Source: Haliea salexigens DSM 19537 (lineage in GTDB: Bacteria; Pseudomonadota; Gammaproteobacteria; Pseudomonadales; Halieaceae). Taken from it: 64,000 nucleotides of DNA. The DNA lies in the NCBI RefSeq assembly GCF_000423125.1, contig NZ_KE383979.1, forward strand, positions 1 through 64,000. Reading direction: 5' to 3'. Positions 10,690 to 12,680 of the stretch are shown piece after piece. Below the pieces are notes generated by a model. That model did not search any database. It worked only from the letters and a program-made list of their open reading frames with translations, and was not told where the DNA came from. Positions within the stretch are counted from its first letter, which is position 1; every line of letters starts with the position of its first letter. The translations under genes were made by a program, and so were the position numbers.

Positions 10690-11051
10690 TCAGGTGAAGA
10701 AGTAGGTGTACAGCAATCGTCCCGGCATGGCGAGCGCGCCCACTGCGGCGCCCAGCGTGCCCAGGTAGGCTCCGACAGCGAACCCCCTGTGGCGCCGGAT
10801 ATTGCCGCACCGTATGGCACTGACAGAAATCACCACGCAGATGATGACCCAGATCGACAGCAGATGAATGGGCCCATAGCCCATGAACCAATCGAGATGA
10901 CTGGTCAACCAGAACGATGAGAGAGCTGCCACCATCATTGCCACCATCCACGACCAGCCTAGCACTCGATGCCGCGGTGTGCCTTTGGTGGAGGCGAGCT
11001 GGAACGCGCCGATCGCCAACACCCATAGCGCCGCTGCGAGATGAATGTAAA
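10690..11051 (-). pseudogene. DUF2306 membrane-protein gene interrupted by the IS110-family element
   Basis: On the - strand, codons read YIHLAAALWVLAIGAFQL, then STKGTPRHRVLGWSWM and SPIHLLS-like GPIHLLSIWV, ending in PGRLLYTYFFT. This is a DUF2306-type four-helix membrane protein. The 5' end is missing here because the IS occupies 11052-12475. Joining 11051 to 12476 restores ATG-AGC-GTT-TAC-ATT-CAT on the - strand, giving an intact 122-codon frame starting MSVYIHLAAA. The start codon and first bases therefore lie at 12476-12482. The gene is inactive unless the IS leaves precisely or an internal TTG/GTG start is used. Confidence 0.8.
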
Positions 11052-11058
11052 CAATGGG

Positions 11059-11072
11059 ATGGACTCCTCCTC
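11059..11072 (+). repeat. left subterminal inverted repeat of the IS
   Basis: ATGGACTCCTCCTC is the perfect reverse complement of 12459-12472. It sits 7 bases inside the left junction, as in IS1111-group elements. Confidence 0.88.
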
Positions 11073-11143
11073 ACCTAACCGGCATCTACGTGCCAAAATG
11101 GTGAGTGATAAGCCAACCATCATGAAGATGAGGAGAAGCCCAG

Positions 11144-12181
11144 ATGAATATTATCCGCGTCGGTGTTGATATTGCCAAGTCAGTCTTCCACGTGCACGGC
11201 GTAGACCGTCACGATCAAACTCAATGGCAAGGCAAATACTCCCGCCACAAGTGGCTTGATGCGATCAGCCGGAAAGTACCGGCCGGTGCCGAGATTGGCA
11301 TGGAAGCCTGTGCCTCATCTCACTACTGGGCCCGGGAACTGCAGAAGCGGGGTTATCACGTCAGGTTGATTGCCGCACAGTTTGTGAAGCCCTATGTCAA
11401 AAGTAACAAAAATGACCGGGTGGACGCGGAGGCGATCTGCGAAGCCATGAGCCGGCCGAACATGCGTTATGTCGCGCCCAAGACGGTTGCCCAGCAGGAC
11501 ATTCAGGCAGCGCACCGTATCCGGGAAGAGCTTGTGGGACAGCGTACCGCCAAAGCCAACCAGATCCGGGGACTGGTGGGAGAGTACGGCATTGTCGCGC
11601 CGGTGGGCATCCAGCAGCTCCGCCGGGCCTTACCAACATGGCTGGAAGACGCCGAGAACGGACTTAGCGATAGTTTCCGCATTCTGCTGAATGGGCTGGC
11701 TGAGGATCTCCAGCACCTGGATGATCGCGTCGCAAAGCTTGACGAGCGGATCGCTGACAGTGTCAAGCAAGATCCTGTGGCGCAACGTTTGATGACCTTG
11801 CGTGGCGTGGGGCCGCTCACAGCAAGTGCCTTGTCGGGCGCCTTGGGCGACGCGAAGGCTTTCCGCAGAGGACGGGACTTCGCCGCCTCTCTTGGGTTGA
11901 CGCCCAGACAGCACAGCACCGGGGGTCGGGATCGTCTGCTGGGGATCAGCAAGCGCGGCGACAGTTACCTGCGCAAGCTGCTCGTTCATGGAGCACGAGC
12001 CGTGTTGCGTCATGTTGATGGCAAAGACGACGGACTGAGTCATTGGCTTAAAGGCCTTGCCTCCCGAAAGCATGTCAATGTGGCAACGGTAGCACTGGCC
12101 AACAAAACAGCCCGAATTGCCTGGGCGCTGGTGCACAACGACACGGACTATGACAACAACCTGGCTGCAGCCAGCATGTGA
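11144..12181 (+). CDS. IS110-family (IS1111 group) DEDD transposase
   Basis: The product has 345 residues and is full length. The RuvC-like N-terminal domain shows Asp9 in VGVDIAKSVFHVHG, Glu in GMEACASSHYWAR, and two Asp in KNDRVDAEAI, completing the DEDD tetrad. The C-terminal tnp20-type domain has LRGVGPLTASAL and the conserved serine region SLGLTPRQHSTGG...LLGISKRGD, the serine used as nucleophile in IS110 recombinases. The enzyme works with a structured guide RNA from the element's non-coding end. A GAGGAG ribosome-binding site precedes the ATG. No frame damage is visible, so it is probably active. Confidence 0.95.
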   Translation: MNIIRVGVDIAKSVFHVHGVDRHDQTQWQGKYSRHKWLDAISRKVPAGAEIGMEACASSHYWARELQKRGYHVRLIAAQFVKPYVKSNKNDRVDAEAICEAMSRPNMRYVAPKTVAQQDIQAAHRIREELVGQRTAKANQIRGLVGEYGIVAPVGIQQLRRALPTWLEDAENGLSDSFRILLNGLAEDLQHLDDRVAKLDERIADSVKQDPVAQRLMTLRGVGPLTASALSGALGDAKAFRRGRDFAASLGLTPRQHSTGGRDRLLGISKRGDSYLRKLLVHGARAVLRHVDGKDDGLSHWLKGLASRKHVNVATVALANKTARIAWALVHNDTDYDNNLAAASM

Positions 12182-12458
12182 GGTGCCGTCTGAACGTGGC
12201 ACACAAAGTGAGTCAAACAGAGTTTCCAAGGGAGACATCCAACACCGCGATTGCATGGCATTTTGATTGATGGCGAACAGGTCGAACCGACGCCGGGAAA
12301 ACCCTTTATGAGCGTGGAGCCACGAGCTCGTGTAAGCGATTGGGAACCGGCGTGCGAATAGCCCTTCAGGGTCCGATGCCTATAAAACGGCATCATTGGA
12401 GAGACCGGATACACGTAGGCAGTCGTACCTTCTCGTGATCAAAAAAGTGCTTGCAATA
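12182..12458 (+). ncRNA. candidate bridge (seeker) RNA of the IS
   Basis: The non-coding right end can fold into two enclosed loops in the order expected for a bridge RNA. Target loop: closing stem 12291-12296/12347-12352 (CGCCGG/CCGGCG), guide 12308-12315 (atgagcgt, complementary to right flank bases 12474-12481 across the core), hairpin 12317-12329 (GAGC-cacga-GCTC), guide 12331-12335 (tgtaa, identical to left flank 11045-11049). Donor loop: closing stem 12377-12381/12417-12421, guide 12394-12398 (cattg, complementary to the IS left end), guide 12409-12414 (atacac, identical to the IS right end). All four guides sit in the same relative order around core AC. The exact RNA ends are unknown. 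Confidence 0.68.
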
Positions 12459-12472
12459 GAGGAGGAGTCCAT
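12459..12472 (-). repeat. right subterminal inverted repeat of the IS
   Basis: GAGGAGGAGTCCAT mirrors 11059-11072 perfectly and lies 3 bases inside the right junction. Confidence 0.88.
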
Positions 12473-12680
12473 ACACGCTCATCGTGTTGCGCGGCGGAGT
12501 GCGACTGATGAAGTGTGTTTTTGCATGAGCTGGTGCGTCCTGTGTGCCATCGACATCGAGGTACCTGCATAGTAAGAGGCGTGAGCGCCAGCGGCAACAA
12601 CGCCGCTTGCGGCCATTCCTTTGTTTCCCGCACAATGTGAGCATGATCCTCTTTCTGCTCCATCCTCGTGGCGCGTAACC

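What the first reader, a model, noticed from the sequence alone, without database searches (positions are those of the whole stretch)
12182..12458. A readable bridge (seeker) RNA whose guides match this very insertion site
Seen: in the IS non-coding end, atgagcgt (12308-12315) is the exact complement of the right flank across the core, and tgtaa (12331-12335) copies the left flank; a GAGC/GCTC hairpin lies between them and a CGCCGG/CCGGCG stem encloses them. Downstream, cattg (12394-12398) and atacac (12409-12414) match the IS's own left and right ends in the same order. Known: IS110/IS1111 elements use a bridge/seeker RNA with a target loop then a donor loop. Inference: this is the RNA, and its specificity predicts other insertion sites (ATGTAAACGCTCAT-like). 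An 8-base match in about 290 bases is roughly a 1% event alone; four ordered matches are far less likely by chance.
Basis: partly seen in the sequence, partly recalled or inferred. Interest (0 to 1): 0.82.

Follow-up and report, generated by a model that had tools for sequence, protein, structure and literature searches.

The report
Guide RNA of an IS1111 element

Summary
The RNA is real by comparative evidence. The element is a 1,424-bp IS1111-group insertion sequence (11052-12475); the 277 bases between transposase gene and right repeat encode a seekRNA/bridge RNA. Of 92 elements gathered (window included), 72 had both ends and flanks. In them the right guide (12308-12314) fits each element's own right flank, and the left guide (12332-12337) its own left flank, far better than swapped flanks do (0 of 20,000 permutations). 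The enclosing helices covary (12 of 15 pairs). Four congeners carry the uninterrupted site. Exceptions: a 99.6% identical copy (L089) fits only the left guide; a plasmid copy (L084) fits neither. New inference: the lineage's left guide reads GTAAGCG, the start of IS66-family terminal repeats. Of 11 elements with left guide GTAAGC, 4 have IS66-type genes beside the site (one of them weakly assigned); of 61 others, none was found. The window's own insertion, at a gene start, would then be a near-match. The mechanism is published; this is a new member.

The parts
11052..12475 (+). IS1111-group insertion sequence, 1,424 bp
   Evidence: perfect 14-bp subterminal inverted repeats; uninterrupted site in four congeners, no target duplication; 99.6% identical copy L089 has the same ends
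11046..11051 (+). left half of target, TGTAAA
11052..11058 (+). left terminal extension CAATGGG (right half of the donor junction)
11059..11072 (+). left subterminal inverted repeat
11144..12181 (+). transposase, 345 aa; Pfam DEDD_Tnp_IS110 and Transposase_20; D9, E54, D91, D94 and a GL-P----TG motif (T259)
   Evidence: catalytic residues assigned by motif, not by experiment
12182..12458 (+). non-coding region that encodes the seekRNA/bridge RNA
12290..12297 (+). 5' arm of the stem that encloses the target loop
   Evidence: 7 of 8 pairs with changes on both sides
12308..12314 (+). right target guide ATGAGCG, complement of the right flank 12476-12482
12317..12329 (+). hairpin between the two target guides (12317-12320 with 12326-12329)
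   Evidence: 3 of 4 pairs with changes on both sides
12332..12337 (+). left target guide GTAAGC: five left-flank positions plus the core C
   Evidence: unsupervised map: flank positions -5, -4, -3, -1 track 12332, 12333, 12334, 12336
12346..12353 (+). 3' arm of the enclosing stem
12362..12368 (+). right donor guide, family CCCAT(C/T)A, here CCCTTCA (base 12365 differs from the 71 other elements)
   Evidence: changes with the IS left end in a few elements; see caveats in the report
12409..12414 (+). left donor guide ATACAC, copy of the right end plus core C
   Evidence: ATACAC with ATACA-C in 15 and ATATAC with ATATA-C in 54 of 72 elements
12459..12472 (+). right subterminal inverted repeat
12473..12475 (+). 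right terminal extension ACA
12476..12482 (+). right half of target, CGCTCAT (on the minus strand the ATG AGC G start of the interrupted gene)
10690..11051 (-). body of the interrupted gene; by inference its first two codons now lie beyond the IS
   Evidence: ORF 10690-11022; flanks and congener site

Best explanation
Window 11052-12475 is an IS1111-group element whose downstream non-coding region makes a seekRNA/bridge RNA. The RNA binds the DEDD transposase. [quoted passage not shown] the guides overlap at the core. Its second loop holds guides for the joined IS ends (ATACA|CAATGGG) of the circular intermediate. Strand exchange at the shared C inserts the IS with no target duplication. In this lineage the left guide TGTAAGCG may have evolved to land in terminal repeats of IS66-family elements while the right guide changes with the subtype of repeat; the insertions at two gene starts in this genome would be near-matches. 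Shown by sequence: guide-flank covariation, RNA helices, empty sites, covariation of the left donor guide with the right end. Inferred: expression, protein binding, strand pairing, chemistry, circular intermediate. The confidence given is for the seekRNA reading; for the IS66 reading it is about 0.5.
For: DEDD and Transposase_20 domains; sTIRs with 7- and 3-bp extensions. Guide against own flank, 58 distinct loops: right guide mean 5.84/7 (null 3.89, sd 0.12), left guide 5.40/6 (null 3.42, sd 0.12), 0 of 20,000 permutations as high; the same in the 28 whose targets do not start C[GA]G.C. A map of 13,100 column pairs puts the left guide and the left donor guide at the top. Helices: 96% of cells paired, 12 of 15 pairs with double changes, slid controls 27-50%. 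Empty sites: window target in 4 of the 7 other genomes of the genus, merD site, pKHM-1 site. Left donor guide base 12412 and right-end base 2 agree in state C on a label that needs two changes on the tree. IS66: 4 of 11 elements with left guide GTAAGC against 0 of 61 others (Fisher p 3e-4, after the fact); uninterrupted IS66 ends in other genomes begin GTAAGCG; the two guides of L002 spell TGTAAGCGCTCAGT, found beyond the tnpC gene of an IS66 element in G019.
Against: Right guide 3-4/7 in 6 of 72 (L028, L063, L076, L084, L089, L096); left guide 3/6 in 3 of 72 (L055, L068, L084), of which L055 is an anchoring error on inspection. The right guide appears only diffusely in the unsupervised map, among spurious pairs. 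Permutations do not correct for relatedness. The right donor guide never equals the full complement CCCATTG: it fits at 5 of 7 (CCCATCA, 37 elements) or 6 of 7 (CCCATTA, 27) in the CAATGGG elements; L075, L080 and the window break its covariation, and L011, L027 and L044 that of the left donor guide. Bases 12363-12367 also pair inside the predicted RNA with 12269-12273, which could explain part of their conservation, the CTCAT change included. For IS66: no end with the window's exact GTAAGCGCTCAT was found (43 matches in 140 family genomes against 49 for the reversed control; none of the 30 fetched hit the IS66 queries); 7 of the 11 showed no IS66 hit within 2 kb. No Rfam family reaches its gathering score.
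Confidence: 0.93

Rival explanations
1. The guide matches are chance, and the non-coding region is only a structured 3' end or terminator of the transposase mRNA.
For: Taken alone, three of the four matches are common by chance (22%, 19%, 6%), and one of them (cattg) is indeed chance.
Against: Guide-flank covariation over 58 distinct loops with 0 of 20,000 permutations as high; targets differ widely between relatives while guides follow.
Confidence: 0.02
2. The GTAAGCG left guide is inherited and coincides with IS66 ends by chance; the lineage has no preference for IS66 elements.
For: 7 of 11 elements with this guide show no IS66 hit within 2 kb; no IS66 end with the window's exact 12-mer was found in 140 genomes; the test was made after seeing L089.
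Against: 4 of 11 against 0 of 61, 3 of 10 against 0 of 61 without L089; in L007 and L022 the right guide also fits the flank 7/7 and in L083 6/7; L002's two guides spell 14 bases found beyond an IS66 tnpC gene.
Confidence: 0.3
3. The window copy is a dead end: its donor guide is changed at 12365, so it can no longer excise or move by itself.
For: Base 12365 differs from the 71 other elements and breaks one pair with the IS left end and one predicted inside the RNA; its genome holds no second near-identical copy, the next being 80% identical in protein.
Against: Transposase frame, sTIRs and target guides are intact; the paper reports that a short 82-nt seekRNA suffices for ISEc11 (PMC11187229, passage), so the donor loop may tolerate a mismatch.
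Confidence: 0.4

Closest known systems
IS1111-family seekRNA systems (ISEc11, ISPa11, ISKpn4, ISPst6; Siddiquee et al. 2024, PMC11187229; seen: outline, first two of nine parts of the text, sections 8, 9, 13, and passages)
   Same: DEDD transposase of 330-350 aa, sTIR with 7/3-bp extensions, downstream NCR, top-strand complement before bottom-strand match, no duplication
   Different: other target; donor guides are also read here by covariation; RNA not shown experimentally
IS621 bridge RNA (Durrant et al. 2024, PMC11208160; passages seen)
   Same: target loop and donor loop, guides overlap a core dinucleotide
   Different: IS110 group: RNA in the left end; here in the right end, with the order of left and right guides reversed (order statement from PMC11187229)
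IS4321/IS5075 (IS1111 family; target terminal repeats of Tn21-like transposons; PMC8269217, passages seen; Partridge and Hall 2003 seen only as a reference)
   Same: aims at the terminal repeat of another mobile element; accidental insertion at look-alike gene sites, including one just after a start codon
   Different: here the repeat is that of IS66-family elements, inferred from sequence only

Membership tests
IS1111 group of the IS110 family | DEDD transposase with Transposase_20 C-terminal domain and G-L-x-P-x4-(S/T)G motif | tested here: met
   (motif in 68 of 69 elements with a frame over 320 aa)
IS1111 group of the IS110 family | subterminal inverted repeats, usually 11-13 bp, with 7-bp left and 3-bp right extensions | tested here: met
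   14-bp perfect repeats, CAATGGG and ACA
IS1111 group of the IS110 family | long non-coding region downstream of tnp | tested here: met
   277 nt, 12182-12458
IS1111 group of the IS110 family | no target duplication | tested here: met
   uninterrupted sites in congeners, merD, IncC plasmids
[quoted passage not shown]
seekRNA / bridge RNA | conserved RNA structure around the guides | tested here: met
seekRNA / bridge RNA | donor loop matching the IS ends | tested here: inconclusive
   left donor guide follows the right end in 69 of 72; right donor guide fits at 5-6 of 7, with few changes and counter-examples, and may also pair internally
seekRNA / bridge RNA | RNA is expressed and bound by the transposase | not testable with these tools
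   needs RNA sequencing of the complex
IS66-end-targeting lineage (proposed here) | elements with left guide GTAAGC lie in IS66 terminal repeats | tested here: inconclusive
   4 of 11 against 0 of 61; the window copy itself does not
Rfam families | match at gathering score | tested here: not met
   0 matches in the window

The most novel reading that the evidence does not exclude
A lineage of IS1111 elements is an RNA-guided parasite of IS66-family elements: its left guide is held on the start of the IS66 terminal repeat (GTAAGCG), and its right guide changes separately to follow repeat subtypes. Because a good match in one half can carry an insertion with a poor match in the other (L089), copies spill into look-alike sites such as gene starts, which offers a stepwise route by which such guide RNAs change target in nature.
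Probability: 0.5. Interest if true: 0.62.

Novelty: new member of a known kind. Interest (0 to 1): 0.45.

Why it matters
It gives a fully read natural guide RNA with a verified empty site, a family of 72 natural guide-target pairs of the IS1111 type from which pairing rules can be learned, and comparative evidence that at least the left donor guide is under selection in IS1111 elements. If the IS66 inference holds, one RNA-guided mobile element preys on the ends of another, as IS5075 does on Tn21-like transposons.

Tried and rejected
The alignment put the right guide partly out of register because loop lengths differ; replaced by a best-of-six-offsets score, with the same freedom in the permutations. 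The script stopped on an error after printing its table; repeated in mended form. Exact IS66 end for the window's guides (GTAAGCGCTCAT) in 140 family genomes: chance level. Viral contigs as a source of more copies: 3 distant loci, not used. Copies in 25 genomes of relatives: one match in 19 of 25, not added to the statistics. Idea that the L089 site lost its right half by deletion: unlikely, since similar IS66 ends in other genomes run through the site; no empty site was found in the 4 other genomes of its genus searched. No protein structure prediction was run; it would not bear on the RNA.

Full report
What is there. Window 11052-12475 is a complete insertion sequence. Its 345-aa protein matches DEDD_Tnp_IS110 and Transposase_20 and, more weakly, the solved ISCro4 and IS621 transposases (E 1e-8 and 1e-6). 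The ends are 14-bp perfect subterminal inverted repeats with extensions CAATGGG and ACA, the pattern described for the IS1111 family in PMC11187229. Of the seven other genomes of the genus examined, four hold the DNA left of the IS, and in all four it runs on across the site with no duplication or loss at the junction. Their 13-bp targets differ from the window's by one to three bases, and two of the four (alike in this stretch) have a small gap a few bases further on. On the minus strand the site is the start of a gene, ATG AGC G | TT TAC.

All letters and coordinates are correct. By themselves they are suggestive only: shuffled NCRs hold the 8-mer in 0.5% and the three short ones in 6-22% of cases; all four together in 0 of 20,000.

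Comparative test. I gathered the window element, the second element of the same genome (L002), 80 relatives from one scan of genome contigs (the best 80 of 453, itself a capped list), and 10 more from plasmids and whole genomes: 92 in all. 72 had both ends and enough flank; 20 were dropped for a missing end or flank (listed). Four further hits were left out as the same loci again (L085, L086, L087, L090), and L094 as truncated. An unsupervised map of 13,100 pairs of NCR column and flank or end position put left-flank positions -5, -4, -3 and -1 against 12332, 12333, 12334 and 12336, and right-end position 2 against 12412, at the top (the pair with 12474 is trivial, since 12474 is that position). 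The right guide showed there only diffusely, among spurious pairs, because its register shifts with loop length; for it I scored the best of six offsets. Of 72 elements the right guide fits its own flank 7/7 in 21, 6/7 in 22, 5/7 in 23, 4/7 in 3 and 3/7 in 3; the left guide 6/6 in 42, 5/6 in 19, 4/6 in 8 and 3/6 in 3. For 58 distinct loops the means are 5.84 and 5.40 against 3.89 and 3.42 when flanks are swapped, none of 20,000 swaps reaching either; for 28 loops with targets not starting C[GA]G.C, 6.04 and 5.46 against 3.62 and 3.17. The swaps do not correct for relatedness.

RNA structure. On 54 non-redundant sequences the stem 12290-12297/12346-12353, the short stem 12302-12304/12342-12344 and the hairpin 12317-12320/12326-12329 form standard pairs in 96% of cells; 12 of 15 pairs show changes on both sides, and sliding one arm by 1-3 columns gives 27-50%. 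The structure came from the consensus of these sequences, which favours it over slid versions on cells paired. The window's NCR with its right repeat folds better than shuffles (z -3.0, 2 of 200 as good).

Donor loop. The left donor guide 12409-12414 reads ATACAC in 15 elements whose right end is ATACA-C and ATATAC in 54 whose right end is ATATA-C; three of 72 (L011, L027, L044) disagree. On a tree of 60 transposases the C state needs two changes. It is never the full complement of CAATGGG: it fits at 5 of 7 bases in 37 and at 6 of 7 in 27 of the elements with that end. It changes with the IS left end in a few elements: CTCAT with CAATGAG (2, one clade), ACCAT with CAATGGT (2), CCCATCG with TGATGGG (1); L075 and L080 are counter-examples. 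The same bases are predicted to pair inside the RNA with 12269-12273, so part of this conservation may be internal. The window alone of 72 has T at 12365; its near-twin L089 has A.

Exceptions. L089, in another genus of the same family, differs from the window IS at 6 of 1,424 bases and has the same target guides, but lies at GTAAG|CGGTTTA: left guide 6/6, right guide 3/7. L084, on the IncC plasmid pKHM-1, is 99.9% identical to L007 of Idiomarina loihiensis with the same guides, but lies cleanly in a site matching neither target guide (3/7 and 3/6).

IS66. L089's right flank encodes an IS66 transposase, so I asked whether the lineage's left guide, GTAAGC, is aimed at IS66 ends (that such ends begin GTAA was recalled). 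Of 11 elements with this guide, IS66-type genes begin 7 to 335 bp right of the site in L007, L022, L083 and L089; of 61 others, none gave a hit within 2 kb of either side. Fisher p is 3e-4, not corrected for relatedness and set up after seeing L089; without L089 it is 3 of 10 against 0 of 61. Limits: the five queries come from these four loci, so other IS66 subtypes could be missed among the 61; some flanks are cut by contig ends; L083 rests on HTH_Tnp_1 and a TnpB_IS66 match below the curated cut-off. In L022 the far end of the IS66 element begins likewise (18 of 24 bases), and IS66 copies in other genomes of the family have ends starting GTAAGCG without an insertion, two of them close to the L089 repeat. 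L002's two guides spell TGTAAGCGCTCAGT. That 14-mer lies in G019 378 bp beyond an IS66 tnpC gene, where two other copies have a GTAAGCG end at 396 bp; its similarity to the other end is imperfect and no target duplication was seen. The exact 12-mer of the window's guides was not found at an IS66 end: 43 hits in 140 genomes against 49 in the control by my count of the table, and none of 30 fetched hit the IS66 queries. Precedent: IS5075 aims at Tn21-like repeats and strays into ureC and to a gene start (PMC8269217, passages). Two searches joining IS66 with IS1111 or IS110 listed 2 papers and 15 of 67; no title or shown abstract start speaks of such targeting (listings only).

Mechanism and limits. 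Pairing of the guides with the two strands, circle formation and strand exchange follow from published work on IS1111 and IS621. Expression, binding and movement of this element were not shown. The circle junction would place TTGCAA 17 bases before CACAAT, a possible promoter, by inference only. The host is probably in Halieaceae: a contig of a same-genus genome and one of a named Haliea MAG have the same length and match position.

Noticed in passing
L084 (pKHM-1, IncC plasmid), IS at locus 1151-2555: The off-guide site resembles the element's own donor junction (12 of 19 positions, highest of 70 elements scored; 0.12% of 73,112 background positions with a core C reach it, but at least six places in the plasmid stretch L106 also score 12), as if the donor loop had chosen the target. 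A single case picked after the fact.
   Followed up: partly
L002 (G000:C25:9539-10960): A second IS1111 element of the same genome, 72% identical in DNA, interrupts merD at its start between merA and merD; the site is intact in an E. coli plasmid.
   Followed up: yes
L025-L080, Pseudomonas, Dyella, Duganella and other relatives: 30 of 58 distinct target loops go with right flanks starting C[GA]G.C, many of the form GGCCAnAAG|CGGACGTTC in unrelated genomes, perhaps a repeated intergenic sequence; not examined.
   Followed up: no
69 elements with a frame over 320 aa: Among close relatives the right guide seems to change faster than the left: at 95-98.5% transposase identity (30 pairs, not independent) 2.0 of 7 against 0.6 of 6 bases differ; at 85-90% the two are alike (2.05 and 2.12).
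   Followed up: partly
L019 right flank: The joined site continues into an imperfect inverted repeat (18 of 24 bases) of a TAAGCG end within about 40 bases, like two IS66 ends face to face without genes.
   Followed up: no
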